Shown here: in pieces, positions 21,700 through 35,680 of the stretch
Layout: each line of letters starts with the position of its first letter
Numbering within the stretch: position 1 is the first letter of the stretch
NCBI RefSeq assembly: GCF_030068605.1
Contig: NZ_JASJOU010000014.1
Location: forward strand, 184,140-248,139
Reading direction: 5' to 3'
Length of the DNA: 64,000 bases
From: Xanthocytophaga agilis
Lineage (GTDB): Bacteria > Bacteroidota > Bacteroidia > Cytophagales > 172606-1
Made by a program: the position numbers and the translations under genes
Notes under the pieces: model-generated
What the model saw: the letters and a program-made list of their open reading frames with translations, nothing else
What the model was told of the DNA's origin: nothing
Database searches by the model: none

Positions 21700-22251
21700 T
21701 TATTGGGGCAAAATAATATAGTCAACGGGTACTTCATCGGTTAACCATACGCCATTTGCCGATTTATAGAATACCTTTCCATCCTGATGCATTTCCAATG
21801 CTTTAATAGGTAATACTACAGGAACACCATGTCGGGCACCTACATTTTTAGCCGTATCTACATCTGGTGATAAATGCACATGATGTCGACTACGTTTCGC
21901 CAGACCTGATTTTCGAATAGAGGGCAGATTAGAAGCTGCTGTGCCATGATACAGAAACTCAGGTGGTGTCTGTGCCTCATACCCCAGATCAACTTGTATC
22001 GAATGTCCCTGACTAGCCCGAATCATCGATCCATCTGTACTAAAGGCAAAACGTTGCTTGTCGTTGTTGGCTACTACTTGCTTTAGTTTTTCGAGCGTTA
22101 GTTTGATCTGACTGTAGGCATTGAACTGATGAATCAGTTCGTCTACTCCTACATAACCATTTTCGTCAAGAATGATACCTATCTCATCTGGACGGTGTCT
22201 CAGTACATAACTGAGTGTTTTACTTATTTTAAATTCTTCTTTAGATGACAT
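21700..22251 (-). CDS. kptA: RNA 2'-phosphotransferase (Tpt1/KptA)
   Basis: A 183-residue Tpt1-family enzyme of normal length. It transfers the 2'-phosphate left at an RNA splice or repair junction to NAD+, giving repaired RNA, nicotinamide and ADP-ribose cyclic phosphate. The family's conserved residues are visible: LSYVLRHRPDEIGI near 13-26, LYHGTAASNLPSI near 99-111 and RSRHHVHLSPD near 120-130. In this island it should act after a healing-sealing ligase leaves a 2'-phosphate; the macro-domain and ADP-ribosylglycohydrolase neighbours could then process its ADP-ribose product. Confidence 0.93.
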   Translation of the reverse strand: MSSKEEFKISKTLSYVLRHRPDEIGIILDENGYVGVDELIHQFNAYSQIKLTLEKLKQVVANNDKQRFAFSTDGSMIRASQGHSIQVDLGYEAQTPPEFLYHGTAASNLPSIRKSGLAKRSRHHVHLSPDVDTAKNVGARHGVPVVLPIKALEMHQDGKVFYKSANGVWLTDEVPVDYIILPQ

Positions 22252-24290: not shown

Positions 24291-25748
24291 TTATCCTTCC
24301 CAACCTTTGGTACGTTTATCCGGATCTGCCATACGTACGATCTTAGGTGTGAACCGAGCAAGTACTTCAACCAGATCATTTTGATAACTCATAACCTGAT
24401 TAATGTCCTTATACACCATAGGTGCTTCATCCAGATCTCCTCCAATCAATGTGACTCCTTTATCAGTCAGTACTTGTTTGAGTTCTGGTCTGGTAATCGT
24501 TTTTAAGGCTTTGGAACGGGATAACAGTCTGCCTGCACCATGTGAAGCAGAACAGATCGATGAAGAATCCCCCTTGCCACGTACTACAAAACCGGGTTGT
24601 GTCATCGAACCAGGTATAATACCCATTACACCTTTACCTGCTGGGGTAGCTCCTTTGCGATGTACCATTACTTCCCGGCCATCTGCCAGGGTCTCTTTCC
24701 ATGCAAAGTTGTGATGGTTCTCAACCATCGCTACAGGTTTACTGCCAATAGCCTGTGCTAGCCGGCGATGGATCTGATGATGACATGCAGAGGCATATTC
24801 ACCTGCCAGATTCATTCCAATCCAGTATTCCTGCCCTTCTTCGGTATTCAGATCTAGCCAGGCCAGATGTTGTGCTTCTCGGGGAAGTTTCGTCTTTTCT
24901 GTTGCAATCTTTGAGTAGTGAGTAGCAATATTAGCCCCAAATCCTCTTGATCCCGAATGACTTAGTAACGCCAGATACTTGCCCTTCGGTAACTTCAATT
25001 CTGGTGTTTGCTCTGTAATATCCAGAATACCCAATTCCACAAAGTGATTGCCAGTACCTGAGGTGCCTAATTGTTTTTCTGCCTTGTAACGCAACTGTCT
25101 GATCTGAGCAGTTGATTTCCATTCAGGTAAATCGAAAATGGTATCTGATAACTGGTCTCTATTTTCTCCATCCAGGCCAAAGTAGGTATGATCTAACAGA
25201 TGTTGTTTCAGTAGTTTTGTTTTCTGATCCAGAAAAATAGCATTGATGTCAAACACAGACAGACACATTCTACAGGCAATATCAACTCCTACTGCATAAG
25301 GAATGATGATATTAGGTTCTGTAGCTAGTACTCCTCCAATAGGCAGTCCATATCCTGAGTGCGCATCAGGCATTAGGGCTCCTGCTACTGCTACTGGTAG
25401 TTGCATAGCTGCATTCATCTGATGTTTGGCGTCATCTGATATGTGCTCAGTTCCATAAATTGGATAAGCCAAGGGATCAGTCCGTAACTCAAACGATTGG
25501 ACAATGGCCTGGGATTTTTTGAACAAAGATGCCCTGCTTTTTACTTCCTCTGCCAGTTCGGCAAACAATTCATTGGAGGTATAGCTATCCGGATTCTTTA
25601 ATAATTCTTTATAAAAAGCCAGTAAAGCTTCTTTTGTATAGGTTTTATTTTTAATCAGACTTTTGGCTAATCTGCCTGCCAGTTCCAGCAAGGCTTCATC
25701 TTTAATACCAATTGCCTTTAATTCGTTATTATTTAATTTATTGCTCAT
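24291..25748 (-). CDS. rtcB: RNA-splicing ligase RtcB
   Basis: A 485-residue GTP- and Mn-dependent ligase joining 2',3'-cyclic-phosphate (or 3'-phosphate) and 5'-OH RNA ends. Metal and guanylylation residues are visible: GVDIACRM near 155-162 with the metal Cys, LSHSGSRGFG near 264, HNFAWKE, HRKGATPAGKGVMG, and the guanylate-accepting His in SASHGAGR near 400. It is longer than E. coli RtcB (about 408) and nearer the archaeal/eukaryotic length. No RtcA or RtcR is present; here it sits between an ADP-ribosylglycohydrolase and an uncharacterised protein in the repair run. Confidence 0.95.
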   Translation of the reverse strand: MSNKLNNNELKAIGIKDEALLELAGRLAKSLIKNKTYTKEALLAFYKELLKNPDSYTSNELFAELAEEVKSRASLFKKSQAIVQSFELRTDPLAYPIYGTEHISDDAKHQMNAAMQLPVAVAGALMPDAHSGYGLPIGGVLATEPNIIIPYAVGVDIACRMCLSVFDINAIFLDQKTKLLKQHLLDHTYFGLDGENRDQLSDTIFDLPEWKSTAQIRQLRYKAEKQLGTSGTGNHFVELGILDITEQTPELKLPKGKYLALLSHSGSRGFGANIATHYSKIATEKTKLPREAQHLAWLDLNTEEGQEYWIGMNLAGEYASACHHQIHRRLAQAIGSKPVAMVENHHNFAWKETLADGREVMVHRKGATPAGKGVMGIIPGSMTQPGFVVRGKGDSSSICSASHGAGRLLSRSKALKTITRPELKQVLTDKGVTLIGGDLDEAPMVYKDINQVMSYQNDLVEVLARFTPKIVRMADPDKRTKGWEG

Positions 25749-26219: not shown

Positions 26220-26270
26220 TGTGAAATAAATGTTTTGCAGGTTTATGTATAATTAAATTGTGATGTACAT

Positions 26271-26345
26271 TGGTTACCCCGGAATGATTCGAACATTCAT
26301 TTGTCGGGTAGAAGCCGACCGTCCTATCCCTTGGACGACAGGGCA
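26271..26345 (-). tRNA. tRNA-Arg(TCT) inside the repair run
   Basis: A full cloverleaf on the minus strand: acceptor TGCCCTG / CGGGGTA, D-arm GTCC...GGAC, anticodon arm GTCGG-CTTCTAC-CCGAC (anticodon TCT), T-arm GAATG-TTCGAAT-CATTC, discriminator A and encoded CCA. It lies between the Thg1-like gene and the gene before rtcB. Confidence 0.9.
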
Positions 26346-26400
26346 ATGGTTTGAATTAGCTTAATGTAATCCCTGCTACACTAAGTAGCAGGGAATTTAA

Positions 26401-27120
26401 TTATTCTGTTGATACAGGCATTAATAAGTTTTGCAGAAAGGCCCGATCCTGAGTAAAAATTGGAACATCACTTACAGTCCATCGATTGCGTAAAGCACCT
26501 TGTTTTTCAAAGGATTCTTTGGAGATGATGCGTCCTCTTTTGTATCGGGGAGCATAGTTATTCCAGTTGATGCCTTTCTGAAAAATCAACTCCTGTTTTT
26601 GATCGCTGCTCTTATTGGTCAACTCTTTGTGGGTATACAATGACTGAGCTACATTAGAGATGGAGTTTCGGGTAGCATCCTGTTGTCTCCAGATAAAGTA
26701 GTTTTCAACTTCTATCTGAAATGGAATAGTAAATACCCGACTGTCAAAATATGCCAGTTTCCCTGGTCTCAATTCATTGAACTTCGCTGTCGCCAGACTA
26801 GCAGAGATGGAAACCATTTTCTGAATATTGCCATCAAACCAGGCAGCAGTAGTGAGTTTATCAAAATCAGTTAGAGCAATAGAAATCTCATCTGATTGCA
26901 CATACGCAAAGCGAGCTCCCTGAATATTGGCACATAAAAAGCTGGCAGTTGTATCCATATCCTGCATAAACTGATCATCAAAAGGGCGGACTAATCCACG
27001 GGTATAGGTGTGAAATGCCTTTCCATCTATTCTGATAATGGTATAGGTACGTCTGGGTAAGGCAAACCGGGTTCTGTCTTCATAGTACATTTTCATCCGG
27101 TCGCCTAAAGTATCTTTCAT
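26401..27120 (-). CDS. Thg1-like 3'-5' RNA polymerase (TLP)
   Basis: A 239-residue member of the tRNAHis guanylyltransferase superfamily. The palm-domain metal ligands lie in IIRIDGKAFHTYTR (about residues 27-40) and YVQSDEISIAL (about 73-83). ATRNSISNVAQSLY matches the family's R-N-S segment. Bacterial TLPs add nucleotides to 5'-truncated tRNAs in the 3'-5' direction using the 3' half as template, so here it should rebuild damaged 5' ends. The start is preceded by the shared CTACAACTATG motif. Confidence 0.92.
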   Translation of the reverse strand: MKDTLGDRMKMYYEDRTRFALPRRTYTIIRIDGKAFHTYTRGLVRPFDDQFMQDMDTTASFLCANIQGARFAYVQSDEISIALTDFDKLTTAAWFDGNIQKMVSISASLATAKFNELRPGKLAYFDSRVFTIPFQIEVENYFIWRQQDATRNSISNVAQSLYTHKELTNKSSDQKQELIFQKGINWNNYAPRYKRGRIISKESFEKQGALRNRWTVSDVPIFTQDRAFLQNLLMPVSTE

Positions 27121-27144
27121 AGTTGTAGTTATTAAAATTGATTG

Positions 27145-27741
27145 CTAATTCCAGAGCATTCCAGCCGGATTGAGTTCTATCTGGAATTTCTGAGCATCAC
27201 CAAAGTTGTCAAGCTTTCTTTTCTTCTGAAGGATAATATCTTCATAAGCATAAAACATCTGACGGGCAGCTATCCTATAAGGCATTTTACCCACTCCGGT
27301 ACAAAGTCCGGGAATGGCTACCGTTGCTATATCAGGATGAGATGTTGTGGCAACTAAGATTGCCTTCATTGCCAGATATGCATTCAAAGAAGCATGGATC
27401 ATGAAATCCATTGGTACTCGCATGGTAGGTGCCGAAATCAGATAAGGGATTTTTGAATCAAAGGTTGGGATCACCAACGCCTTGCCTATCAGCAATTCTC
27501 GTTCTGGCAATTCCGAGATCTCTTTTTGTACTCTGTCCTGCAAATCCCAGCCAAACCGCTCAGAAAGTAGATAATCTAAGCCTCCATCCATAAATCCAAA
27601 CGAGTTTGCCGGACTCACAATGGCATCACAACTAAGTTGTGTGATATCCGTGTTAAGGATTTGGACATCGGGCTGATCCCGGAAGTATTCTCTCCAGGCT
27701 TCGCCCAGTCCCTGTTCTTTATAAGCTAATAAAAGTTTCAT
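27145..27741 (-). CDS. macro-domain protein
   Basis: A 198-residue macro domain. Signatures are NTDITQLSCDAIVSPANSFGFMDGGLD (about residues 29-55, the ADP-ribose-binding start with N and the GG loop) and TVAIPGLCTGVGKMP (about 141-155, phosphate-binding loop). Macro domains of this kind hydrolyse ADP-ribose 1''-phosphate or ADP-ribose esters. In this island the natural candidate substrate is the ADP-ribose cyclic phosphate released by KptA, or ADP-ribosylated RNA ends. Its start is embedded in the shared CTACAACTATG leader. Confidence 0.85.
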   Translation of the reverse strand: MKLLLAYKEQGLGEAWREYFRDQPDVQILNTDITQLSCDAIVSPANSFGFMDGGLDYLLSERFGWDLQDRVQKEISELPERELLIGKALVIPTFDSKIPYLISAPTMRVPMDFMIHASLNAYLAMKAILVATTSHPDIATVAIPGLCTGVGKMPYRIAARQMFYAYEDIILQKKRKLDNFGDAQKFQIELNPAGMLWN

Positions 27742-27768
27742 AGTTGTAGTTGTTAAGGTTGGAAAACC

Positions 27769-28566
27769 TTATTGTTTTACCCACTGTATAGCGAAGTCAA
27801 TAAATGCTTCACGCACAAAAGGAAACACAGTGACATTGGGGATATGATTTACTTCCAGAAGATACTTCTTTCCATCAATACCTATCATATAGTCAATGCC
27901 TACTATCTGAAAATGGAAGTAGTTTGCTAAACGTTTTGCATCTTCTTCCAGGTCTGAATCAACAAGCATTTGAGCTGCATCCGGGTGATGAATAGACTTG
28001 AGCCAGTCTTCCCCTTTCAGGTGAATTTGCCAGACTTTATCACCAATAAGCATAATCCGAACAGCGTCGCCTTCTATAAAAGGTTCGTAAACTGTTATTT
28101 CATCCGGAGATGTCCATGTATCCTGAATACGTGCTTTGTTTTCTCCACAGTGCCAGTTACTCCATTTCGCTACAGTAGGTTGCTGAGCATGCCATTCACC
28201 TGAAGTAAGAGACATTCCTCTTGGAATATCTCCAAATTTCGTAACACGTAGTGCTCTTACCAGTCCAGAATGTCGAAGTCGGCAATCCATCATACCTCCG
28301 GCGTCTGGAAGGCAAGGCCCATTCCATAGAGCTAATAGTGTTAGAAAATCAAAATCATTTTCGAAGATACCATGGTAGATTACTTTGTCTACCTTTAGGA
28401 AAGTACCAGGATGTAAACGACTCTCCACATACAAGTTGCCATCAACCAGCTTACTCAGTGGCAGGTGTTCATAAACAACTGTCAGGCAGTCGAGTTGACT
28501 GGTAATTGCGGTAACTTCCGGCGGTTCAAGGCCAACCAGAAGTAATCGTGGTTTCGGACTAAGCAT
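27769..28566 (-). CDS. ATP-grasp domain protein
   Basis: A 265-residue protein with an ATP-grasp fold in its C-terminal half: VYEPFIEGDAVRIMLIGDKVWQIHLKG (about 160-186) and the metal-binding VGIDYMIGIDGKKYLLEVNHIPNVTVFP (about 224-251). The family forms amide or thioester bonds via acyl-phosphates; the substrate is unknown. An extra ATG, in another frame and 7 bp upstream, is the one preceded by CTACAACT, so the conserved leader is present but offset. Confidence 0.75.
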   Translation of the reverse strand: MLSPKPRLLLVGLEPPEVTAITSQLDCLTVVYEHLPLSKLVDGNLYVESRLHPGTFLKVDKVIYHGIFENDFDFLTLLALWNGPCLPDAGGMMDCRLRHSGLVRALRVTKFGDIPRGMSLTSGEWHAQQPTVAKWSNWHCGENKARIQDTWTSPDEITVYEPFIEGDAVRIMLIGDKVWQIHLKGEDWLKSIHHPDAAQMLVDSDLEEDAKRLANYFHFQIVGIDYMIGIDGKKYLLEVNHIPNVTVFPFVREAFIDFAIQWVKQ

Positions 28567-28591
28567 AATTTCATAGTTGTAGATTCATTTT

Positions 28592-29674
28592 TTACATTTT
28601 ATTCAGTACATCCAGTAAAGCCTGAGTTTTCATCTCATAAAGATAGGTTTTCACAGAATGCACTTTTTGATCCCGTAACTGAAAGAATACACCTGGAATT
28701 TTGGTGCTACTGGCACTAATACCAAAGGTTTTTCTATCCTCAATATCTTTGATCTGATTCCAATGAGTCTCCAATTCATAAATTAGGGCATCATATTTCA
28801 ATTTTAGTTTCTGATAAGGCTCTGTATATTCCTTCATATAAGAGAGAAACTCTGAACCTTCATTGGTTTTGATAATTTCCAGCAGATACCGATGAGTAGT
28901 TTTGTCTTCAATCCCTCTCAGGAATCCTATACTTATATATTGCAGAGATTTTATTTTAACCCGGTTAAAGTTTGCATCACATACTACAAAGCCTTCCTGT
29001 TTCATGGGATTCAGCTGCTTGCCAGCTTCCAATACTTCTTCAAGTTTGGTTAACGGAAAGGACGGGACGGCATCCCATTTGTATTTTACTGCTACTGTTT
29101 CCGGAAATTCTTCCTGCAGGGTTTTCGTATTTCTGGCACCTAACAGAGCCAGATTGTTTTCTGTATAAGGCACTACTATTTGTGTATAGGGAGAGGTAAG
29201 CTCGAACACATAACACCAATCTGTTTCAGTAGGTAGTTTATATCCCTTACTTTTCCATGTGTTCCAGAACAATTCACTCATGGTAAAAGTCTGGTCTCTG
29301 ATCAGCCCTGAGGCATCGGGTAAACTGGCAGAGGCTATATGCCAGGCTCCATTATAAAAATAGAGTGTCATAATAGACCCATCTATCTTTTCATATACCC
29401 GTGCCTGAGTCCAATCTATAGTGGATGCATAAAACTCATCGTAATTGAAAAACTTTTTGAAAGGAAAAGATACAATCTCCCAATTGTTTGACTCATCCAG
29501 AATAATCCCCCGACATTCCTGAACCACAGGTTCACGCATAGGGGACTCAAGCTGATCATATTTTAATTGTACCAGATGAGGATACTGCTTATGTCTGTTG
29601 ACCCGTATCCCATATTGTGTAGTCAGGTCATTCAGAGACTTGCTCCGTAAGAATGTTTGTACCTGTAATTCCAT
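28592..29674 (-). CDS. T4 Rnl1-like ATP-dependent RNA ligase
   Basis: A 360-residue nucleotidyltransferase ligase. Motif I EKIDGS (nucleotidyl Lys near residue 95), RGIILDE and SFPFKKFFNYDE upstream of it as in T4 Rnl1, motif IIIa/IV at YVFELTSPYTQIV and EGFVV, and motif V VKIKS. T4 Rnl1 seals tRNA nicked in the anticodon loop by host anticodon nuclease after end healing. The same role is likely here, but no T4 Pnkp-like end-healing kinase/phosphatase was seen in the window. It lies 32 bp downstream of the second ligase gene. Confidence 0.9.
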   Translation of the reverse strand: MELQVQTFLRSKSLNDLTTQYGIRVNRHKQYPHLVQLKYDQLESPMREPVVQECRGIILDESNNWEIVSFPFKKFFNYDEFYASTIDWTQARVYEKIDGSIMTLYFYNGAWHIASASLPDASGLIRDQTFTMSELFWNTWKSKGYKLPTETDWCYVFELTSPYTQIVVPYTENNLALLGARNTKTLQEEFPETVAVKYKWDAVPSFPLTKLEEVLEAGKQLNPMKQEGFVVCDANFNRVKIKSLQYISIGFLRGIEDKTTHRYLLEIIKTNEGSEFLSYMKEYTEPYQKLKLKYDALIYELETHWNQIKDIEDRKTFGISASSTKIPGVFFQLRDQKVHSVKTYLYEMKTQALLDVLNKM

Positions 29675-29706
29675 ATCTCTAAAGAGGGATTTTCGTTTGA
29701 ATCAAT

Positions 29707-30696
29707 TTATTCGTATTTCAATAAGAATTCCGGATTGATGGCTTTAAAAGATACTCTACCTAGTGTACCCACCTTTTCTGTCAGAGGCCTGATAACAATA
29801 CCTTCCCGCCAGACAGCTGGATTCAATACGGACTTTGCTTTTGATTTTTCAACCAGTGCCTGGATATCATTGCTAAGAGCAAAGTCAGTTTCCAGAACAG
29901 GTACGGGTGTCAGACCCAACTGAGTTATCGTTTTCTGAAAGCCTTCGAAATCGAGGTACTTATACTGATCAATGTCAAATACATTGAAGAATTGTACTGT
30001 CTGACCTTTTAATTTGTACAGGTTACCCTGAATGCCTTCCCCAATGATCTCACCTTGCAGCGCAAAGTTTCCATTCAGGCTTCTCAGTTTTTCTTCGATT
30101 TTTAATGTTCTGGCTACTTTCCATAAGGAGTTATCTGGTGTTTCGAACAATTCCAGGTTTCTGCTGCATACACCAAATTCTCCATTTCTGAGGTAGTACG
30201 TTACAGAAGATCCATCCAATTTTTCTGTGACGTAACATGTGTCACCCTGACAGGCATCCAATAGTTCCTGAAGTACCTGCACTCTGGTTTCATCTGTTTT
30301 TGGAATAAAACTGGGAAACAGGCCTTTGGCTATTCCTGCCAATTGAGCAGGTACAGGTGGTTCATATTTGATAATGCCCAAAATATCCGTTACATCCAGA
30401 TCCTCAGTGATAGGTGTATCTTTTGGCAGAATATGTAATGGAAAACAAATACCCTGAGAAACCTGACCTCTCAGCCGTACTGTACGTATTCTCATACCCC
30501 TGGCTTTAAGAAATTCAAACTCAGGTTTTTCAGGCAGCAGACTGTCGATTTCACAGTATACACAGAGGTCGCCAACGGCAAATTCGCCTTTTTTGACCAC
30601 CAGTTGCCAGCCAAGGACAGTTGCCTTTTCAATGGCGTCTGCTTCTGGAATAGGCTCCAGATTTTTGATTCGTTGAATCGATGCTAATTTTCTCAT
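29707..30696 (-). CDS. RNA ligase, DRB0094 family (Rnl5-like)
   Basis: A 329-residue ligase. The N-terminal 120 residues form the OB-like domain typical of Deinococcus RNA ligase (MRKLASIQRIKNLEPIPEADAIE at its start), followed by the adenylyltransferase domain: motif I EKLDGSS near 160, FALQGEIIGEGIQGN, FFNVFDID, EGIVIRP and motif V VSFKAIN near the C-terminus. The Deinococcus enzyme seals 3'-OH/5'-phosphate nicks in duplexes when the 3'-OH side is RNA. It is the first protein gene downstream of the tRNA/Y RNA array. Confidence 0.92.
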   Translation of the reverse strand: MRKLASIQRIKNLEPIPEADAIEKATVLGWQLVVKKGEFAVGDLCVYCEIDSLLPEKPEFEFLKARGMRIRTVRLRGQVSQGICFPLHILPKDTPITEDLDVTDILGIIKYEPPVPAQLAGIAKGLFPSFIPKTDETRVQVLQELLDACQGDTCYVTEKLDGSSVTYYLRNGEFGVCSRNLELFETPDNSLWKVARTLKIEEKLRSLNGNFALQGEIIGEGIQGNLYKLKGQTVQFFNVFDIDQYKYLDFEGFQKTITQLGLTPVPVLETDFALSNDIQALVEKSKAKSVLNPAVWREGIVIRPLTEKVGTLGRVSFKAINPEFLLKYE

Positions 30697-30745
30697 AGTC
30701 GTAGTGTAGTATTGATTGATACCATTAATTGAATAAAAACTAAAA

Positions 30746-30874
30746 GGGTAACTGGCAATCAGAGTCTTATTACGGGCTTTTACCGCATCTTCCTGTTTAC
30801 ACAGGACGCTTTGTCTCGATTAAGCTATAGCATACAAGGGTATGATAGAAGTACCTCTGATTTACGACACCTTT
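30746..30874 (-). ncRNA. Y-RNA-like RNA Y1 (two-hairpin type)
   Basis: Carries the family stem: 5' strand GTGTCGTA, helix AATCAGAG, G, TACTTC; 3' strand CTCTGATT then GCCAGTTACC. The 8-bp helix is perfect. The insert is not tRNA-like: a 9-bp hairpin with loop CCTT, then a 10-bp hairpin GCGTCCTGT...ACAGGAAGATGC with an AA bulge. Last member of the array, 50 bp before the DRB0094 ligase gene. Confidence 0.65.
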
Positions 30875-30901
30875 TATATAGGAATAAATTCAGAAAGTTG
30901 T

Positions 30902-31045
30902 TACTACATTGAGGAGTGACAGGCAAAAAGAGCACATTTCTCTACCATTGAGCTATCCTGCCTAAGCAGAAGCAGGAATCGAACCTGCAACCTTTCAATT
31001 TTGAATCGAACGAAGTATCTCTTTTTTACGACATCCCATGTAGTA
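30902..31045 (-). ncRNA. Y-RNA-like RNA Y2 with permuted tRNA module
   Basis: Family stem: ATGTCGTA-AAAAAGAG-A-TACTTC and CTCTTTTT-GCCTGTCAC, extended outward by an 8-bp helix TACTACAT / ATGTAGTA that fixes the ends. In between, in order: an anticodon-like hairpin TTCGA-TTCAAAA-TTGAA, T-arm GCAGG-TTCGATT-CCTGC, acceptor strands TTCTGCT and GGCAGGA joined by only TA, and D-arm GCTC-AATGGTA-GAGA. This is tRNA order with the acceptor ends joined and new ends opened at the anticodon stem. Confidence 0.75.
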
Positions 31046-31053
31046 CACTCCCT

Positions 31054-31128
31054 TGGTTGCTTCGAAACGAGTCGAACGTTTATCTGCTGGTTCGTAGCCA
31101 GCTGTCCTATCCTTTGAACGACGAAGCA
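31054..31128 (-). tRNA. tRNA-Arg(ACG)
   Basis: Complete cloverleaf: acceptor TGCTTCG / CGAAGCA, D-arm GTTC...GGAC, anticodon arm GCTGG-CTACGAA-CCAGC, T-arm AAACG-TTCGACT-CGTTT, discriminator A, CCA encoded. Confidence 0.9.
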
Positions 31129-31142
31129 ATAGTATTTTTAGG

Positions 31143-31215
31143 TTCGCCCGATGGGATTTGAACCCATGACTCCCTCATTAAAAGTGAGGTACTCTAGCCA
31201 CTGAGTTACGGGCGA
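31143..31215 (-). tRNA. tRNA-Lys(TTT)
   Basis: Complete cloverleaf: acceptor TCGCCCG / CGGGCGA, D-arm ACTC...GAGT, anticodon arm CCTCA-CTTTTAA-TGAGG, variable GAGTC, T-arm ATGGG-TTCAAAT-CCCAT, discriminator A; CCA not encoded. Confidence 0.93.
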
Positions 31216-31221
31216 ATAAAA

Positions 31222-31297
31222 AGAGGCGATAAGCGAAGAATCAAATAATCAATTTTAGATCCGTAGTCTAACGAAGTAACATTTTCCAACGGCACTC
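31222..31297 (-). ncRNA. mini Y-RNA-like RNA Y3 carrying an Arg(ACG)-type anticodon hairpin
   Basis: Family 5' strand AGTGCCGTT-GGAAAATG-T-TACTTCG and 3' strand GATTCTTC-GCTTATCGCC (helix imperfect), closed outside by AAAGAG / CTCTTT. The only insert is one stem-loop TTAGA-CTACGGA-TCTAA, with the size and layout of an anticodon arm showing ACG, the anticodon of the tRNA-Arg 100 bp away. About 76 nt in all. Confidence 0.6.
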
Positions 31298-31299
31298 TT

Positions 31300-31384
31300 T
31301 GGTTGCGGAAGCGGGACTCGAACCCGCGAGGCACAAGGCGGAGGCTTATGAGACCTCTCAGATACCAGCTACTGTCATTCCGCA
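31300..31384 (-). tRNA. class II tRNA-like gene with CAT anticodon
   Basis: Acceptor TGCGGAA / TTCCGCA, anticodon arm GAGGT-CTCATAA-GCCTC, a 13-nt variable region, T-arm GCGGG-TTCGAGT-CCCGC, discriminator A and encoded CCA. A CAT anticodon with a long variable arm is odd: tRNA-Met and tRNA-Ile2 are class I. The D-arm is weak (3 bp CAG/CTG), so this may be a divergent or non-canonical tRNA. Confidence 0.7.
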
Positions 31385-31414
31385 ATCATGTGTTTTCTGT
31401 TTGAGTCAAGAAGA

Positions 31415-31552
31415 ATTGGGGTAACTAACGAAAAGAGACTATTACATTGCTCTACCACTGAGCTACTCTATCATAAATAGTGATAAAGGCAGGATTCGAA
31501 CCTGCGACCCATGGCGTTAAAGGCGAAGTAACTCTTCTCTACGACACCCAAT
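31415..31552 (-). ncRNA. Y-RNA-like RNA Y4 with permuted tRNA module
   Basis: Family stem GTGTCGTA-GAGAAGAG-T-TACTTC / CTCTTTTC-GTTAGTTACC with outer helix ATTGGG / CCCAAT. The 3' half comes first: loop CTTTAAC with GC...GCCAT, variable GGGTC, T-arm GCAGG-TTCGAAT-CCTGC, acceptor CTTTATC. After a 9-nt linker comes the 5' half: acceptor GATAGAG, TA, D-arm GCTC-AGTGGTA-GAGC, A, ATG. Joining ATG to GC-CTTTAAC-GCCAT restores a perfect 5-bp anticodon stem; the anticodon would then read TTA, complementary to the stop codon UAA. Confidence 0.8.
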
Positions 31553-31563
31553 ATTTTAGAGGA

Positions 31564-31605
31564 GAGTGTTAGTTTACAATCGTACACTAACACTCCTTAC
31601 ACTCT
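31564..31605 (-). terminator. hairpin after the GTPase fragment
   Basis: A 9-bp stem AGTGTTAGT / ACTAACACT with a 12-nt loop directly after the stop codon of the GTPase fragment; no clear U-tract. Confidence 0.5.
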
Positions 31606-31836
31606 TTATTCTTTTACAGTCCAGTAGAACTTGACACAAGAGGACTTAATGGTAATGCCACGTTGTTGTTCTTCGGGCATACTATCTGTAACTGTATTGC
31701 CACCATCTACGCTACCACGCCGATGAATGGCTTCTGCTAAGAAGAGTATTTCTTCCGAGAGTGTGGTTTTACCAGAGTCGACATGGGCAATAAAGCCGAT
31801 ATTGCGGAGGTTTTGTAAATCTTTCATAGTTTTCAA
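31606..31836 (-). pseudogene. isolated N-terminal fragment of an EF-G-like translational GTPase
   Basis: Only 76 residues. NIGFIAHVDSGKTTLSEEIL contains the P-loop (AHVDSGKT), and TDSMPEEQQRGITIKSS is the switch I region of EF-G/RF3/TetM-type GTPases. The rest of the protein (about 600 residues) is missing; the frame stops at WTVKE and a hairpin follows. It has its own start context (ACTATGAAA) and a TACAACT motif slightly upstream, like the real genes of the island. It may be a remnant, or a kept small protein that mimics the GTPase N-terminus. Confidence 0.6.
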
Positions 31837-31957
31837 GTTGTAGTTTTCAATAATTGTAAAAATTTATAAGTGAAAAGAATCTTTTCCGATTACGACTCTA
31901 TACGATGAGGTACAGTCATCAGTCAAGTATTTCTTTTCTACAATACCTTTCTTGTAA

Positions 31958-32512
31958 TCAATTTTGTCTAAGCTTATTTTTTTCCTTCCGCCAGCGATAA
32001 AGTAGTTCTGCTTTTCTCTGTCTTTGTGTATCCACTTGAATTGAATTAATGTCTGCAATCCTATAACATGCCAGACCATTATCTTCTCCAAGTGTACCAA
32101 TAGAGTGAATAATCACACAATCATCGCCAGTTTCGCGTACAAAGCCTGTTTCAAGTGTATCGTTAACTTCAAGAGAAATCAGCTTTTCCAGAAATTGCTT
32201 AAGTACATTCATTGGCCATTCGTTGATAAGAGAGCTTTCCAGTTCCTGCACTGTCTGTGTCTCCAGTAGCTGGCTATTTTGAATCAAGTGGTCAAAGGAT
32301 CTTGTATAGTCATTTGTAAATTCTACTCTTTCAATGTTATAGGTCTTTATTACAATGATTCCATCCGGTTTCCCAAGAGTGCTAAAGTGTTGAAGGTCTA
32401 TGGTTTCTGAGGTATAGTTTAGGATATAGCCCAACCAGAATTTGCTATCTCCCCGTAAATAGATAGAGAGTAACTTTTTCTGTGTTTTCGAAATCTCAAA
32501 TAGTTTTTCCAT
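31958..32512 (-). CDS. uncharacterised protein between Ro60 gene and array, possibly frameshifted
   Basis: A 184-residue soluble protein, beta-rich in both halves (RGDSKFWLGYILNYTSETIDLQHFS; DDCVIIHSIGTLGEDNGLACYRIADINSIQVD). No family is recognised; the repeated strand-turn-strand pattern ending in an I-D-x-I-x-V motif recalls small Sm-like/SH3-like barrels, uncertainly. At its end a run of seven A follows CGGAAGG. Skipping one base there opens a frame reading ISLDKIDYKKGIVEKKYLTDD and on for 37 codons to 31864, which continues the style of the protein. The gene may therefore be longer and interrupted. Confidence 0.6.
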   Translation of the reverse strand: MEKLFEISKTQKKLLSIYLRGDSKFWLGYILNYTSETIDLQHFSTLGKPDGIIVIKTYNIERVEFTNDYTRSFDHLIQNSQLLETQTVQELESSLINEWPMNVLKQFLEKLISLEVNDTLETGFVRETGDDCVIIHSIGTLGEDNGLACYRIADINSIQVDTQRQRKAELLYRWRKEKNKLRQN

Positions 32513-32588
32513 TGGGAGTGAGAAGTCTGTTAAAACTCTATTTACAAGCAGGTTGAGTAATGCATCATCTCAACCTGCTATTCGAATA

Positions 32589-34106
32589 TTAAAGGATAAT
32601 CTTTTCAATCTCAGCTACTGCATTGCTGCCATTTTCAATGGCCTCCAGTATATCAAATACTTTGTCTGACCAACCTGCAATCATGAATACATCATTACTT
32701 TCAGTCCGTAGTGGCATTTGTCCGTAGCCTGCCAGATCAAAAAGGTAGATTTTAGCATTGGGAGCAATCTGTTTGTATTTGCCCCATAGTTTGGCAATGT
32801 TGTTGCCATCACCTTTGCTATTCCATAGCTGACAATCTGTGAAGAACATGACTTTGTCCACTACTTGGCCTTTGTCAATCAGATCCTGTATCACCAGATG
32901 ACCATTCGTTGCGTATCCTACTTCACCTTCCCGTCTGCGTAATTCAGTGGTGTTAGCCAGAATATGGTTGCTTGCCAGATTGACTACTTTCCACCGATCA
33001 CCGAAGAAACCTGAAATTACTGATTTGCTACGGGATTGTAGAAGCATAGCCAGGATCAGACCGATATCATAGTTTTGTATTCGGCTACGTGGTGAGATAA
33101 AGGTTTGCATAGAACCTGAAACATCACACGCAAGCAATACTTTTGTATTAATATCAAATCCTTTGATATTAGCTGCACTAACTTTTACCGCATCTTCCAG
33201 TGCATTTAGTATCAGTGAAGTGTATACTGTGTTCACTTCTTTCAGTTCCCGGTATGCTGCCAGAAATCGGAATGGAAGCTGTTTTGAATTTTTAACTTCT
33301 CTCTCATTGGCCAGTCGGTCTGCAACCCGATTTATATGTTGTTCACTAACTGTTGCCTGTAGGATATTTCGCAGGTTTCGTAGCAATGCCATATAACCCA
33401 GTTTACCAGAATCAATCAGTTCTTCCCATTTTGCTTTAACTGCTGCCTGACGAGTTGCTTCATTTTCAAAGGATTGCTGACCTAGTGCAGATAGTTCAAC
33501 CTCCCATGTGTAAGGTACTGTCAGTCCATCATTCACGATTTTATCGAAGAGCAGTTGTTGGGTTTCATCTTTTGCTTTTGGGTGTACCAGAAACAATGCA
33601 TCTCGTAGTTTCACTTCTGCCTCACGGTTGTATTTTGCAAACTGGTATTCGTCAAATTTATTGAAGGCCAGTGCAATACCTCTCTGTAGTTGTTTAGAAA
33701 GTTTTCCCAGTTTTTTGATTCCATCCCTACGGTTAGCTGCCTGGTAATAAGCTAGCAGTTCGGTAATTTCATCTGCACGTTGGATAATCCGGCTTACCAT
33801 TTTGGATACCAGTTGGTCTCCTGAGTGTACCCGGACTAGCTCAACTGCCAATACCAGAGGTATAGAACGCAGATGCATTCGTTCCCTAGCATATACAGCA
33901 AGTTGTGCCACAAATACCGGATCAACCTTCTGGATCAGGATTCGGATGCGATCTATTTTCTGATCTGCCTTTTCATAGAACTGATCAGAAAGTGAAGAGG
34001 TTACTACTGCTGAATATAGTTCCAGTTCTGAAGTGATTGTATAGGCAGGTGCACCTTCATGGTTTACAATCTGGTTTTTGTTTTTAGTAAGAATATTAAA
34101 TTTCAT
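32589..34106 (-). CDS. rsr: Ro60/TROVE-domain RNA-binding protein (Rsr-like)
   Basis: A 505-residue Ro60 orthologue, close to the usual length. The HEAT-repeat TROVE ring covers about residues 15-320 (AVYARERMHLRSIPLVLAVELV is typical). The C-terminal von Willebrand A-like domain has an intact MIDAS start LACDVSGSMQT near residue 330. Bacterial Ro60 binds Y RNAs on its outer surface and misfolded or damaged RNA in its cavity, often tethering an exoribonuclease. The gene is flanked on both sides by Y-RNA-like genes. Its start lies in the shared CTACAACTATG leader. Confidence 0.93.
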   Translation of the reverse strand: MKFNILTKNKNQIVNHEGAPAYTITSELELYSAVVTSSLSDQFYEKADQKIDRIRILIQKVDPVFVAQLAVYARERMHLRSIPLVLAVELVRVHSGDQLVSKMVSRIIQRADEITELLAYYQAANRRDGIKKLGKLSKQLQRGIALAFNKFDEYQFAKYNREAEVKLRDALFLVHPKAKDETQQLLFDKIVNDGLTVPYTWEVELSALGQQSFENEATRQAAVKAKWEELIDSGKLGYMALLRNLRNILQATVSEQHINRVADRLANEREVKNSKQLPFRFLAAYRELKEVNTVYTSLILNALEDAVKVSAANIKGFDINTKVLLACDVSGSMQTFISPRSRIQNYDIGLILAMLLQSRSKSVISGFFGDRWKVVNLASNHILANTTELRRREGEVGYATNGHLVIQDLIDKGQVVDKVMFFTDCQLWNSKGDGNNIAKLWGKYKQIAPNAKIYLFDLAGYGQMPLRTESNDVFMIAGWSDKVFDILEAIENGSNAVAEIEKIIL

Positions 34107-34170
34107 AGTTGTAGTAATTGGTTAAAGGTGATTAACGACACTTTTTAATGGTAATGCATAGTTTATAGAT

Positions 34171-34297
34171 TGAGGCAACAGACGAAAAGTGACTTTTAAA
34201 ATTGCACCATCACACCAACGTGTGAGCAGGATTTACACCTGCAAGCTCCGACTTCCAAAGTCAGCGTGTCGAAGTAACACTTTTCTACGGCACTCAT
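34171..34297 (-). ncRNA. Y-RNA-like RNA Y5 with permuted tRNA module (TGG)
   Basis: Family stem AGTGCCGTA-GAAAAGTG-T-TACTTC / CACTTTTC-GTCTGTTGCC, with perfect 8-bp helix. The insert has an intact anticodon arm CTGAC-TTTGGAA-GTCGG (TGG, as in the array's tRNA-Pro), variable AGCTT, T-arm GCAGG-TGTAAAT-CCTGC and an acceptor stem TCACAC / GTGTGA sealed by tetraloop GTTG. The D-arm region is degenerate. It is the first RNA upstream of the Ro60 start. Confidence 0.75.
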
Positions 34298-34299
34298 AG

Positions 34300-34383
34300 T
34301 GGAAGCAGTAGGATTCGAACCTACTCAGCCCGAAGGCAACTGATTTACAGTCAGCTCCAACTCTCCATCTTTGGCGTACTTCC
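34300..34383 (-). tRNA. tRNA-Tyr(GTA)
   Basis: Complete class II cloverleaf: acceptor GGAAGTA / TGCTTCC, anticodon arm GCTGA-CTGTAAA-TCAGT, long variable arm, T-arm GTAGG-TTCGAAT-CCTAC, discriminator A; CCA not encoded. Confidence 0.93.
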
Positions 34384-34394
34384 AGATTACATAC

Positions 34395-34538
34395 AAGAGG
34401 CAACAAGCAAAAAGTCTTCTATGGGCTCTATCGAGTTACCTGTGTTCTGAAATATTAAACTATCCTGATCATTCAGGAACAGGGGTTACACCTGTACAAC
34501 AGATTGGAACGAAGTATGACTTTTTTACGACACTCTTT
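34395..34538 (-). ncRNA. Y-RNA-like RNA Y6 with tRNA-like module
   Basis: Family stem AGTGTCGTA-AAAAAGTC-A-TACTTC / GACTTTTT-GCTTGTTGCC, outer AAGAG / CTCTT. Insert: T-like arm ACAGG-TGTAACC-CCTGT, acceptor stem TCCTGA / TCAGGA sealed by tetraloop ATGA, TA, D-arm GTTT...GAAC, then a further stem-loop around CTCGATA in the anticodon-arm position. Here the anticodon-like hairpin lies in the 5' half, unlike Y2 and Y5. Confidence 0.7.
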
Positions 34539-34540
34539 TG

Positions 34541-34615
34541 TCGGGGTGGCAGGATTCGAACCTGCGGCCTCCACATCCCAAATGTGGCGCGCTAACCTGA
34601 CTACGCTACACCCCG
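34541..34615 (-). tRNA. tRNA-Pro(TGG)
   Basis: Complete cloverleaf: acceptor CGGGGTG / CACCCCG, D-arm GCGT...GCGC, anticodon arm CCACA-TTTGGGA-TGTGG, T-arm GCAGG-TTCGAAT-CCTGC, discriminator A. Confidence 0.93.
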
Positions 34616-34621
34616 AGACCT

Positions 34622-34712
34622 TGGTGGAGAAGGTGGGACTCGAACCCACAATACGCTTTGACACGTACGACAGTTTAGCAAACTGCTCCGTTAACCATTC
34701 TGGCACCTCTCC
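34622..34712 (-). tRNA. tRNA-Ser(GCT)
   Basis: Class II cloverleaf: acceptor GGAGAGG / CTTCTCC, anticodon arm GCAGT-TTGCTAA-ACTGT, long variable arm, T-arm GTGGG-TTCGAGT-CCCAC and encoded CCA. Discriminator is A where bacterial tRNA-Ser usually has G. Confidence 0.88.
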
Positions 34713-34725
34713 ATTTTTTACTTAA

Positions 34726-34923
34726 AAAAAGGCTACAAGCGGGAAGAGATCTGGCTTTTCGCCGTCGTCCTTATCCTGCGTATAGGACAGTGGACACGCC
34801 TTCGACATCCCAACGGGTGGGACTTGCACCTTTACAGGCATTGGCTTCGCTCTATCGGTTACCCGATATACGCTACCTTAGGACCATTATAGTATGAAGT
34901 AACTCTTCCCTACGGCACTTTTT
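34726..34923 (-). ncRNA. Y-RNA-like RNA Y7 carrying a 23S rRNA mimic
   Basis: Family stem AGTGCCGTA-GGGAAGAG-T-TACTTC / CTCTTCCC-GCTTGTAGCC, with outer helix AAAAAG / CTTTTT. Directly after the stem comes ACTATAATGGTCCTAAGG and then TAGCG, matching the universally conserved 23S rRNA segment of helices 69-71 (E. coli about 1912-1935) at 22 of 23 positions. TCGGGTAACCGA follows, a shortened version of the next 23S hairpin. The remaining 110 nt fold into several short hairpins I cannot name. Confidence 0.75.
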
Positions 34924-34939
34924 GTTTCATTGATATTTT

Positions 34940-35050
34940 TTTTGCTTTCAGTGTGTCCTTTTTGAACGCTCCCGTTTGCAAACAGGAGTGGTTGGATTAA
35001 CCACATCTCACTTCTGCGAATGAGGCCCACTAAGAAGGCAGGCACTACTT
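34940..35050 (-). ncRNA. divergent Y-like RNA Y8 with permuted tRNA elements
   Basis: It starts AGTGCC like the family, but the next block differs, and the closing helix (CTTCTTAGTG with CACTGAAAG) is imperfect. Inside: hairpin CTCAT...GTGAG, T-arm-like GTGGT-TAATCCA-ACCAC, acceptor strands TCCTGTT / AACGGGA sealed by TGCA, and D-arm GTTC-AAAAA-GGAC. The order is that of a permuted tRNA. Probably a degenerate family member. Confidence 0.45.
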
Positions 35051-35070
35051 TGGGGGTTTATAACCCTGGA

Positions 35071-35139
35071 GATTTATCAGGGAATTGAACCCTTGCCATC
35101 TGCCAATAGCAGATATAATCAGCCATGATTTGATAAACC
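35071..35139 (-). tRNA. divergent tRNA-like gene, anticodon ATT
   Basis: Acceptor GGTTTAT / ATAAATC, D-arm AATC...GATT, anticodon arm ATCTG-CTATTGG-CAGAT (ATT), T-arm around TTCAATT with 4 pairs. All four arms can be drawn, but the D-loop is short and ATT is not a usual bacterial anticodon (Asn uses GTT). Possibly non-functional or specialised. Confidence 0.5.
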
Positions 35140-35145
35140 AAAAAG

Positions 35146-35220
35146 AAGGCAATCGGCATTATACAAATTAGCTTTACTGAAAAGAACGTCTTGCCAATTG
35201 CCTTTTGCTAATCTGTATGC
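35146..35220 (-). ncRNA. structured element with interlocking helices
   Basis: Two long pairings interlock: a 12-bp helix (ATACAGATTAGC with GCTAATTTGTAT, one G-U) and a helix GGCAAT / ATTGCC extended by AAAA / TTTT. Because they alternate in order, they form a pseudoknot or two mutually exclusive folds. It lacks the Y stem. Confidence 0.4.
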
Positions 35221-35351
35221 TGAGGTTATATGCTGCAAGAGTCTTTCTCTCAGAATGTACTTCTGGAGTATCCGGATCTATCTGTTTTGCAGACAGTCCG
35301 GTTTTGGAATCGAACCAATATAACCGAAGTAACTCTTGCATACGACACTCA
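35221..35351 (-). ncRNA. Y-RNA-like RNA Y9, partly tRNA-like
   Basis: Family stem AGTGTCGTA-TGCAAGAG-T-TACTTCG / CTCTTGCA-GCATATAACC, closed by TGAG / CTCA. Insert: T-arm TTGG-TTCGATT-CCAA, then a long sealed stem CCGGA-CTGTCTG / CAGATAG-A-TCCGG in the acceptor position, then hairpin CAGAA-GTACA-TTCTG. No anticodon arm is visible. Confidence 0.65.
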
Positions 35352-35371
35352 TTTTGTGGCAGCCTGCCTTG

Positions 35372-35443
35372 GACTCCTTACAGGAATTAAACCTGTATCT
35401 CCGCATAGAAAATGCAGTGACTTTTTCCTTAGTCCAAAGGAGT
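35372..35443 (-). tRNA. divergent tRNA-Glu(TTC)
   Basis: Full cloverleaf: acceptor ACTCCTT / AAGGAGT, D-arm GACT...AGTC, anticodon arm CTGCA-TTTTCTA-TGCGG (TTC), T-arm ACAGG-TTTAATT-CCTGT. Discriminator C and T-loop TTTAATT are unusual; CCA not encoded. Confidence 0.7.
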
Positions 35444-35444
35444 A

Positions 35445-35571
35445 GGGGTGATAAACGAAAAATGTACATTTTGCTGCTCTAACCACTGAGCTACCATACC
35501 TGAGTATGAGAAGGATTCGAACCTCCAACCTGCCGATTATCATTCGAAGTAACATTTTTCTACGACACCCA
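35445..35571 (-). ncRNA. Y-RNA-like RNA Y10, near-perfect permuted tRNA-Ile-like module (GAT)
   Basis: Family stem GTGTCGTA-GAAAAATG-T-TACTT / CATTTTTC-GTTTATCACC, outer GGGTG / CACCC. The 3' half comes first: CGA-ATGATAA-TCGGC, variable AGGTT, T-arm GGAGG-TTCGAAT-CCTTC, acceptor TCATACT. Linker CA, then the 5' half: acceptor GGTATGG, TA, D-arm GCTC-AGTGGTTA-GAGC, A, GC. Joining GC to CGA gives a perfect 5-bp anticodon stem with anticodon GAT. Acceptor, D, T and anticodon arms are all complete, so this is the clearest permuted tRNA of the array. Confidence 0.85.
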
Positions 35572-35607
35572 ATATCCTTATCTGAAGTGTGTCTTCAGAC
35601 TTGTTTG

Positions 35608-35680
35608 TTGCTCCGGGACGATTCGAACGTCCATCTTCCAGTTCAAAGCCGGAAATCTTCAGCCCTTAGACGACAGAGCA
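35608..35680 (-). tRNA. tRNA-Gln(TTG)
   Basis: Complete cloverleaf: acceptor TGCTCTG / CGGAGCA, D-arm GTCT...AGAT, anticodon arm TCCGG-CTTTGAA-CTGGA, T-arm GGACG-TTCGAAT-CGTCC, discriminator A. First gene of the array in the direction of transcription. Confidence 0.93.

What the first reader, a model, noticed from the sequence alone, without database searches (positions are those of the whole stretch)
30746..35571. Array of Y-RNA-like genes with an exactly spaced, covarying terminal stem around a Ro60 gene
Nine minus-strand RNAs share, with no spacing variation, a 5' strand GTGYCGTA-N8-N-TACTTC and a 3' strand N8'-GNYWRTNRCC. The N8 sequences differ (AATCAGAG, TGCAAGAG, GAAAAGTG, GGGAAGAG, AAAAAGTC and others), yet the partner strand changes with them, so the helix is under selection. 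Inserts range from two hairpins to nearly whole tRNAs. Ro60 proteins bind Y RNAs through a conserved lower stem, and bacterial Y RNAs (YrlA) are known tRNA mimics. An array of nine or ten different Y RNAs interleaved one-for-one with tRNA genes on both sides of one Ro60 gene is, as far as I know, not a described arrangement.
Basis: partly seen in the sequence, partly recalled or inferred. Interest (0 to 1): 0.95.

Follow-up and report, generated by a model that had tools for sequence, protein, structure and literature searches.

The report
Inside-out tRNA decoy array on Ro60
Around its gene for the RNA-binding protein Ro60, this bacterium carries nine predicted small-RNA genes with one shared, covarying end stem; at least two spell out complete tRNA folds with the two halves swapped, and the RNAs are predicted to be held by Ro60 and likely act as decoys for enzymes that cut tRNA and rRNA.

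Summary
Nine minus-strand elements with one fixed terminal stem flank a TROVE/Ro60 gene; eight have a fully paired N8 helix (one G-U), the ninth is degenerate. Scans of 154 Ro60 loci gave 615 such elements (563 unique), all on the Ro60 strand. In 247 phylum genomes all 19 with TROVE have a model match beside it; at E<=1e-8 none of 228 without TROVE matches. The RNAs also stand beside TROVE in phages.

The commonest insert (239 elements by strict parsing) is a complete tRNA, circularly permuted: T-arm, acceptor closed by a loop, D-arm, with the terminal stem grafted into the anticodon stem near 28/29. Re-rotated, 199 of 239 are called tRNA by ARAGORN; unmoved, none. The Rfam YrlA model has no anticodon arm. 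And one window insert belongs to a class that copies 23S rRNA helices 69-70.

Best guess: Ro60-held decoys against ribonucleases that attack tRNA or rRNA. The anatomy is shown, the function inferred. New variant of the YrlA kind.

The parts
32589..34106 (-). Ro60 (TROVE + vWA_Ro60) gene, 505 aa
   Evidence: Pfam PF05731 E 2.8e-33; PF25045 E 2.8e-5 but below its curated cut-off
35445..35571 (-). Y-RNA-like element, class I: permuted tRNA; re-rotated = Ile(gat)-like, with anticodon stem GCCGA/TCGGC
   Evidence: E 1.5e-27; YrlA RF02553 E 2.8e-6
35222..35351 (-). Y-RNA-like element with a diverged insert (by eye a T-arm-like hairpin and a long hairpin); no rotation called tRNA
   Evidence: R1 E 2.1e-9
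34729..34921 (-). Y-RNA-like element, class III: insert copies 23S rRNA H69-H70 (ACTATAATGGTCCTAAGGTAGCG, 22 of 23 identical; helix names recalled)
   Evidence: R1 E 4.3e-7
34397..34536 (-). Y-RNA-like element; by eye a degenerate permuted tRNA (T-arm variant and acceptor hairpin)
   Evidence: R1 E 1.9e-13; no rotation called tRNA
34172..34296 (-). Y-RNA-like element; by eye a T-arm variant and acceptor hairpin, D-arm degenerate
   Evidence: R1 E 1.2e-12; no rotation called tRNA
31858..31949 (-). possible tenth element, short; N8 GAAAAGAA/TTCTTTTC paired 8 of 8, flanking motifs degenerate
   Evidence: not found by R1
31418..31550 (-). Y-RNA-like element, class I: permuted tRNA; re-rotated anticodon call tta (unnatural)
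   Evidence: E 7.2e-28; YrlA E 3.9e-6
31223..31298 (-). short, degenerate element (CGTT variant, N8 pairing 5.75 of 8)
   Evidence: R1 E 8.1e-6
30913..31037 (-). Y-RNA-like element, class I-like: T-arm, acceptor hairpin, D-arm; anticodon region irregular; some rotations are called tRNA (Leu caa, Thr cgt)
   Evidence: R1 E 1.7e-19; YrlA E 2.3e-4
30745..30873 (-). Y-RNA-like element, insert of hairpins without a clear T-arm; no rotation called tRNA
   Evidence: R1 E 3.1e-8
31054..31215 (-). two tRNA genes in the array, Arg(acg) 31054-31128 and Lys(ttt) 31141-31215, diverged from the genome's other copies (alignment score per base 0.61 and 0.68)
31300..31384 (-). tRNA-like gene called Met(cat)
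   Evidence: 0.59 to its best relative in the genome
34299..34383 (-). tRNA gene Tyr(gta)
   Evidence: 0.66
34540..34712 (-). tRNA genes Pro(tgg) 34540-34615 and Ser(gct) 34622-34712
   Evidence: 0.87 and 0.77
35067..35139 (-). tRNA-like gene called Asn(att); no copy with this anticodon among the other tRNAs fetched from the genome
   Evidence: 0.52
35371..35443 (-). tRNA gene Glu(ttc), diverged
   Evidence: 0.58
35607..35680 (-). tRNA gene Gln(ttg), diverged
   Evidence: 0.58
28592..30696 (-). two RNA-ligase genes (RNA_lig_T4_1 28592-29674; RNA_ligase + PHA02142 29707-30696)
24291..25748 (-). RtcB RNA ligase gene
   Evidence: an RtcB homologue lies in 69 of 154 fetched Ro60 loci
26401..27120 (-). 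Thg1-like gene
21700..22251 (-). KptA/Tpt1 RNA 2'-phosphotransferase gene

Best explanation
The locus is an array of nine predicted Ro60-partner (Y) RNA genes that share one covarying terminal stem, at least two of them whole tRNA folds circularly permuted so that the predicted Ro60-binding stem enters at the anticodon stem while the acceptor end is closed by a loop, and they likely act as Ro60-held decoys that draw tRNA- and rRNA-attacking ribonucleases away from the real RNAs. Shown by sequence: the shared stem and its covariation; the tie to Ro60; the permutation; the composite anticodon stem (27-28 pair with 43-42 across the insert, while the linker after the terminal stem supplies the partner of 39-41); the closed acceptor; the 23S H69-H70 copy in one insert. 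Inferred: that the RNAs are made, that Ro60 binds the stem, that they cannot be charged or translated because the acceptor is closed, and that enzymes which recognise a tRNA by its anticodon arm, or the ribosome by H69, bind them. Separate confidences: anatomy and Ro60 tie about 0.93; Ro60 binding about 0.85; decoy function about 0.35.
For: Stem and Ro60 tie: 352 elements, 70 of 74 loci, 0 in reversed sequences; 77 of 80 named loci; control 1; 615 of 615 on the Ro60 strand. Whole-tRNA anatomy (239 elements from 119 loci, chosen for a T-arm and a D-arm, not for acceptor or anticodon arm): 27-43 pair in 83.5% and 28-42 in 83.1% (shuffled about 40%, maximum about 50%); linker strand with 39, 40, 41 in 72, 71 and 64% (shuffled 40-43%, maxima 48-52%); U33 71%, pyrimidine-32 80%, purine-37 81%. 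Levitt pair 15-48 is G-C or A-U in 215 of 235 (shuffled mean 133, maximum 155). Re-rotation gives 199 of 239 ARAGORN tRNAs; as is 0; chimeras of two elements 36; shuffled 0. Alignment A2: 25 of 30 pairs change on both sides, covariation 0.80 against 0.24 shuffled and at most 0.18 slid (rows had been chosen for good pairing). For decoys: anticodons vary inside clusters of similar bodies; no two callable elements of one locus share an anticodon, 0 of 88 pairs, 3.1 expected, p about 0.04; the arrays also occur in phages, whose own tRNAs are proposed to escape host anticodon nucleases (PMC10264068, abstract); the repair ligase RtcB lies in 69 of 154 loci; the authors of the Salmonella work name a competitive inhibitor of an anticodon nuclease as one possible role of YrlA (PMC7790460, passage).
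Against: No transcript, binding or cleavage data. The bacterial Y RNA function reported in what I read is tethering Ro60/Rsr to PNPase (PMC8394870 passage), which would not need decoys. In Salmonella, YrlA was not cut by the tRNA-cleaving nuclease (PMC7790460 passage), which fits a competitor but not a bait that is consumed. The D-side strand also pairs above shuffles at 29-41 (49% against 32%, maximum 40%) and marginally at 30-40 (46%, maximum 45.5%), so the graft point is not always exactly 28/29. The class III copy stops short of the TTCCTT that follows in 23S (A1), and no 23S likeness beyond H69-H71 exceeds shuffles. In 73 of 154 loci none of the neighbour-gene queries hit. Anticodon and body agree in isotype in only 38 of 180, and 20 of these are Lys, so decoys aimed at single tRNA species are not supported except perhaps for Lys. 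Six of the nine window elements have no clear permuted tRNA (two of them look degenerate).
Confidence: 0.35

Rival explanations
1. YrlA-type adaptors: the tRNA-like inserts tether Ro60 to PNPase or other tRNA-handling enzymes (repair ligases, modification enzymes), each RNA bringing a client or partner; variety of anticodons is then drift or partner choice.
For: Class I has the T-arm / acceptor hairpin / D-arm order of the Rfam YrlA model; YrlA binds PNPase through this domain and is modified by DusA and TruB (PMC8394870 passage); Ro60 loci often hold RtcB (69 of 154).
Against: A single adaptor would not explain nine exact motif copies at one locus (G037 and G052), the covarying anticodon arm that the YrlA model lacks, or the 23S H69 copy.
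Confidence: 0.33
2. Permuted tRNA precursors: the transcript is cut at both sides of the terminal stem and joined by RtcB or another ligase into a circle, then RNase P and tRNase Z open the acceptor loop, giving working spare tRNAs, as in algae and some archaea.
For: Re-rotated inserts are canonical tRNAs, 199 of 239, with an anticodon stem that is completed across the graft; ligases and KptA lie beside the window array; intervening sequences as short as 1 nt are known in archaeal permuted tRNA genes (PMC3978253 passages); in 36 elements with acceptor loops of 16 nt or more, C74 stands in 28.
Against: 36 of 187 callable anticodons have A34 (other than acg) or read stop codons; 23 Ser/Leu anticodons were called, and the phage Ser and Leu examples sit on bodies with short variable loops; body and anticodon isotypes mostly disagree; 59 of 187 acceptor stems are closed by loops of 5 nt or fewer, and NCCA stands in 5 of 106 loops of 8 nt or more (shuffled mean 1.2, maximum 5).
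Confidence: 0.12
3. Relics: decaying tRNA genes caught by a mobile stem, with no present role.
For: Several window inserts are degenerate and no rotation is called tRNA; the tRNA genes in the array are diverged.
Against: Compensatory changes across the phylum, strict Ro60 strand linkage and 19 of 19 co-occurrence point to present selection.
Confidence: 0.04

Closest known systems
YrlA bacterial Y RNAs (Rfam RF02553)
   Same: Gene beside Ro60/Rsr; terminal stem joining the ends; T-arm, closed acceptor and D-arm in permuted order (PMC8394870 passage).
   Different: Here an anticodon arm is present and covaries, many different RNAs stand in one array, one class copies 23S H69-H70, a GGGG...CCCC class is found once each in 42 loci, and scores stay below Rfam's gathering cut-off (39.5 against 69).
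Salmonella rsr-yrlBA-rtcBA RNA repair operon
   Same: Ro60, Y RNAs and RtcB together (PMC7790460 passages).
   Different: Two Y RNAs there (by the operon's name), nine here; this window adds two other RNA ligases, Thg1-like and KptA genes and tRNA genes within the array.
Circularly permuted tRNA genes of red/green algae and Crenarchaeota
   Same: 3' half lies before 5' half, an intervening sequence joins the acceptor strands (PMC3978253 passages).
   Different: There junctions are reported at 37/38 and 59/60 in loops, at various places in C. merolae, and are processed at a BHB motif to working tRNAs; here the break is in the anticodon stem near 28/29, a Ro60-linked stem fills it, and 36 of 187 callable anticodons are unnatural.
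Phage tRNA arrays that evade anticodon nucleases
   Same: tRNA sets in phages (PMC10264068, abstract); TROVE described as an RNA-repair platform with a tRNA-like partner (PMC7824862 passage on jumbo phages).
   Different: Those tRNAs are ordinary genes; the RNAs described here are permuted and closed at the acceptor.

Membership tests
YrlA / bacterial Y RNA | encoded beside a Ro60/Rsr gene | tested here: met
YrlA / bacterial Y RNA | long helix pairing the 5' and 3' ends | tested here: met
YrlA / bacterial Y RNA | tRNA-like domain with T-arm, acceptor and D-arm | tested here: met
   class I elements only (239 of 563 unique elements parsed strictly; two, arguably three, of nine in the window):
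YrlA / bacterial Y RNA | Rfam RF02553 gathering score 69 bits | tested here: not met
   39.5, 39.0 and 32.9 bits
YrlA / bacterial Y RNA | binds Ro60/Rsr | not testable with these tools
   needs pull-down
YrlA / bacterial Y RNA | binds PNPase | not testable with these tools
   needs biochemistry
Circularly permuted tRNA genes | 3' half before 5' half, forming a canonical tRNA when re-joined | tested here: met
   199 of 239 re-rotated inserts; 30 of 38 parsed, of 43 taken, phage and viral hits
Circularly permuted tRNA genes | BHB splice motif at the junction | not tested
   no systematic scan was made
Circularly permuted tRNA genes | matures into a decoding tRNA | not testable with these tools
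   anticodon statistics argue against it

The most novel reading that the evidence does not exclude
Bacteria and phages keep a bait library: permuted, sealed copies of the RNAs that ribonuclease weapons attack (tRNAs with many different anticodon loops, and 23S helix 69) are cloned onto one Ro60-binding handle and displayed on the Ro60 ring as a general shield for the translation machinery, beside spare tRNA genes and repair ligases.
Probability: 0.28. Interest if true: 0.93.

Novelty: new variant of a known kind. Interest (0 to 1): 0.82.

Why it matters
What Ro60 and its Y RNAs are for is a long-standing open question. Whole tRNA shapes with anticodon arms, and a copy of 23S helix 69, on one common handle make it directly testable which enzymes the RNAs are built to meet. 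H69 is a real ribonuclease target, so far shown for eukaryotic ribosomes (Ribocin, PMC13189344, abstract and passages). If decoys, this is an RNA-based shield shared by Bacteroidota and phages. Some of the loci come from Bacteroides, Tannerella and Dysgonomonas, and it was reported that commensal bacteria with Ro60/Rsr particles may sustain lupus autoimmunity (PMC8394870 passage), so knowing which RNAs such proteins carry has medical interest.

Tried and rejected
Viral motif scan GTGYCGTA-N9-TACTTCG: 101 stretches; the 80 rows shown have one match each. I first read this as 'no phage arrays'; it was wrong, because the phage stem reads GTGGCGTA; the covariance model found them.

Class III as a miniature of the peptidyl-transferase centre: the remainder after H69-H70 aligns to an rrn operon no better than shuffles in the six tested. 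Six other inserts match other places of the 23S stretches at E 0.002-0.008, which is chance for 563 queries. Other rRNA sites: sarcin-ricin loop, decoding site, P-loop and GTPase centre no excess over reversed controls in the bacterial loci; A-loop none there and one viral match; GTPase centre 3 against 1 in viral loci; 16S 1400 region 6 against 2 and 530 loop 21 against 5 in bacterial loci, on both strands at three or four mismatches, not followed up.

Isotype-specific mimics: body and anticodon agree in 38 of 180 (10.9 expected), mostly Lys; rejected as a general rule. Strict anticodon hairpin test on elements with a T-arm: 100 of 389 against 25 expected, so a perfect 3-pair arm with a consensus loop is not universal; the anchored test replaced it.

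Non-class-I inserts rotated through every second position: 26 of 244 called tRNA, shuffled 0; the GGGG...CCCC class gave none of 42, so what it resembles is unknown.

Plasmid TROVE loci: no model match at E<=0.01 in Meiothermus, Rhizobium or Streptomyces, weak ones in Halosimplex beside ordinary tRNA genes; none in one uncultured huge phage, L365. Own 23S not found in the assembly, so another genome's was used. Papers by Chen 2014, Burroughs 2016 and Wang 2018 are not held; what I say of Chen 2014 is recalled or from reference lists. Paper searches for permuted tRNA with Y RNA gave 0; Y RNA with helix 69 and related terms gave nothing to the point in the 8 of 63 titles listed. rRNA helix names and tRNA position numbers are from recall.

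Full report
What is there. The window (G000:C14:184140-248139 of a 9.77 Mb genome; nearest named relative Xanthocytophaga flavus, Ro60 98% identical) holds a minus-strand cluster: a TROVE/Ro60 gene with four Y-RNA-like elements on one side and five on the other, nine tRNA calls among them, then two RNA ligases, a macro-domain gene, Thg1-like, RtcB, ADP-ribosylglycohydrolase, DUF1152, KptA and PARG-type genes. The nine elements and their ends are confirmed.

The stem is real and belongs to Ro60. A second Ro60 paralogue in the same genome (contig C22) has three more elements and three tRNA calls. In 291 genomes of the order, 57 have three or more exact motif matches and 53 of these carry TROVE; TROVE is in 70 (hand tally; the four exceptions are G045, G115, G135, G165). 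At 74 Ro60 loci I found 352 elements in 70 loci and none in reversed sequence (45 mis-paired with a neighbour, mended). At 80 named loci, the best 80 of 256 relatives, 77 have elements (control 1). Together 154 loci, some of them the same record fetched twice, gave 615 elements, 563 unique; all 615 lie on the Ro60 strand, 550 downstream. With the 3' end placed without using pairing, all eight N8 pairs form in 181 of 379 elements against 10 shuffled. A covariance model searched over 247 genomes of the phylum has matches at E<=1e-8 in 18 genomes, all with TROVE; the nineteenth TROVE genome matches at 2.7e-7 beside its Ro60. None of 228 genomes without TROVE reaches 1e-8, although two reach about 2e-8 and 30 reach 1e-5, many with the tRNA-like middle part alone. 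Some genomes searched also supplied model rows.

What the inserts are. The commonest type begins with a T-arm, goes through an acceptor hairpin and ends with a D-arm: a tRNA whose 3' half precedes its 5' half. This is the order of the Rfam YrlA model, to which three window elements are weakly related. Unlike that model, an anticodon arm is present. In 239 parsed elements positions 27-28 pair with 43-42 across the insert, while 39-41 pair with the linker that follows the terminal stem; pairing of 29 with 41 on the D side is also somewhat above shuffles, so the graft point varies a little. The terminal stem is thus inserted in the anticodon stem at or near 28/29. The loop keeps U33 and purine-37, and the tertiary pair 15-48 covaries. 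Moving the halves back gives ARAGORN tRNAs in 199 of 239; unmoved inserts give none and chimeras 36. Of 187 elements with at least six acceptor pairs, 59 have acceptor loops of five bases or fewer and 36 of 16 or more. In the window 35445-35571 becomes an Ile(gat)-like and 31418-31550 a tRNA with anticodon tta; 30913-31037 has the three arms but an irregular anticodon region, with some rotations called tRNA.

Anticodons. Among 187 callable triplets Lys, Pro, Met, Arg and Ile are frequent, and 36 are unnatural in bacteria (A34 other than acg, or stop-reading). Loops vary within clusters of similar bodies. No two callable elements of one locus share a triplet (0 of 88 pairs, 3.1 expected).

Other inserts. 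A cluster of 13 elements from 12 loci has long inserts; ten of them match 23S at H69-H70 in BLAST (best 33 bases at 97%, E 5e-9; window 34729-34921 22 of 23 bases, E 2e-4). With up to five mismatches the segment is found at 13 of 154 loci, 10 after removing duplicates, control 2; with three mismatches 11, control 0. Another type, with an outer GGGG...CCCC stem, occurs once each in 42 loci, with 24 of 31 predicted pairs varying on both sides in the 40 aligned.

Phages. The model finds the same RNAs beside TROVE in Caulobacter phage CcrColossus (seven hits, one overlapping an annotated tRNA-Gln), Brevundimonas phage Kabachok (three) and gut phage csAssE-Sib (one strong hit), and in 25 of 39 viral contigs with TROVE (full-length matches at E<=1e-3, hand count; all 70 listed matches on the TROVE strand). 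The 39 include CcrColossus itself and one pair of like contigs, and IMG/VR contigs are predicted viral, so some host DNA cannot be excluded. Of 43 longer hits taken from these tables, 38 could be parsed and 30 re-rotate to tRNAs, none as is.

tRNA genes. Of 135 loci with two or more elements 24 have at least one tRNA gene among them and 18 have three or more; all 99 are on the same strand. Most window array tRNAs resemble the genome's other fetched tRNAs only distantly (alignment score per base 0.52-0.68; Pro 0.87, Ser 0.77), the Gly gene outside the array perfectly.

Mechanism. A class I RNA keeps features by which enzymes recognise a tRNA, including an anticodon loop, and lacks a free CCA end, so it should be bound but not used (inference). 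Ro60 would hold it by the terminal stem (inference from Y RNAs). Variety without repetition in a locus, presence in phages, repair ligases nearby and a copy of helix 69, a ribonuclease target site in eukaryotic ribosomes (Ribocin, PMC13189344, abstract and passages), fit a set of decoys best. Tethering to PNPase, the function reported for YrlA (PMC8394870, passage), remains nearly as likely, and maturation to tRNA is not excluded.

Known or new. Bacterial Y RNAs beside Ro60, their tRNA mimicry and their company with RtcB are known (PMC7790460 and PMC8394870, passages; Chen 2014 recalled, not read). I did not find in print, in the listings, a permuted tRNA with an anticodon arm on a Ro60 stem, multi-anticodon arrays of them, or a 23S H69 copy in a Y RNA. 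The library holds only open-licence papers and the key Y-RNA papers were not readable, so this is weak evidence of novelty.

Noticed in passing
L005 (G000:C22:1-20000), 8061-8190, 10951 onward, 11094-11216: Second Ro60 paralogue of the same genome with its own three elements, three tRNA calls, a WYL-domain regulator and an unassigned 461-aa gene without a Pfam hit.
   Followed up: partly
L359 2161-2228 (JX100810.1 109217-109284): Annotated phage tRNA-Gln in CcrColossus lies inside a Y-RNA-like element and is likely a mis-annotation of a permuted insert.
   Followed up: partly
42 loci, e.g. L183 12879-13006, L167 7591-7718, L005 8061-8190: Class with outer GGGG...CCCC stem, an inner hairpin and a TTCGACT T-arm-like loop, one per locus; the L183 copy matches no Rfam family at E<=2; role unknown.
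   Followed up: partly
window 35067-35139, 35371-35443, 31300-31384: tRNA calls in the array that are strongly diverged or odd (Asn att, Glu ttc, Met cat); perhaps non-permuted mimics or nuclease-resistant spares.
   Followed up: partly
L390 6172-6302: A viral element whose insert seems, by eye, to be a tRNA in the normal, unpermuted order on the same terminal stem.
   Followed up: no
G045, G115, G135, G165: Three or more motif matches but no TROVE match; not examined (diverged Ro60, assembly gap, free-standing arrays or chance).
   Followed up: no
window 19239-30696: Dense RNA-repair and ADP-ribose cluster (two RNA ligases, RtcB, Thg1-like, KptA, macro, PARG-type, ADP-ribosylglycohydrolase, DUF1152) rarely conserved with Ro60: Thg1 and DUF1152 in 3, KptA in 1 of 154 loci.
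   Followed up: partly
acceptor loops of 16 nt or more, e.g. L165 11737, L205 14564: C74 in 28 of 36 long loops, but full NCCA in only 3 of these 36; possible trace of origin from tRNA 3' ends.
   Followed up: partly
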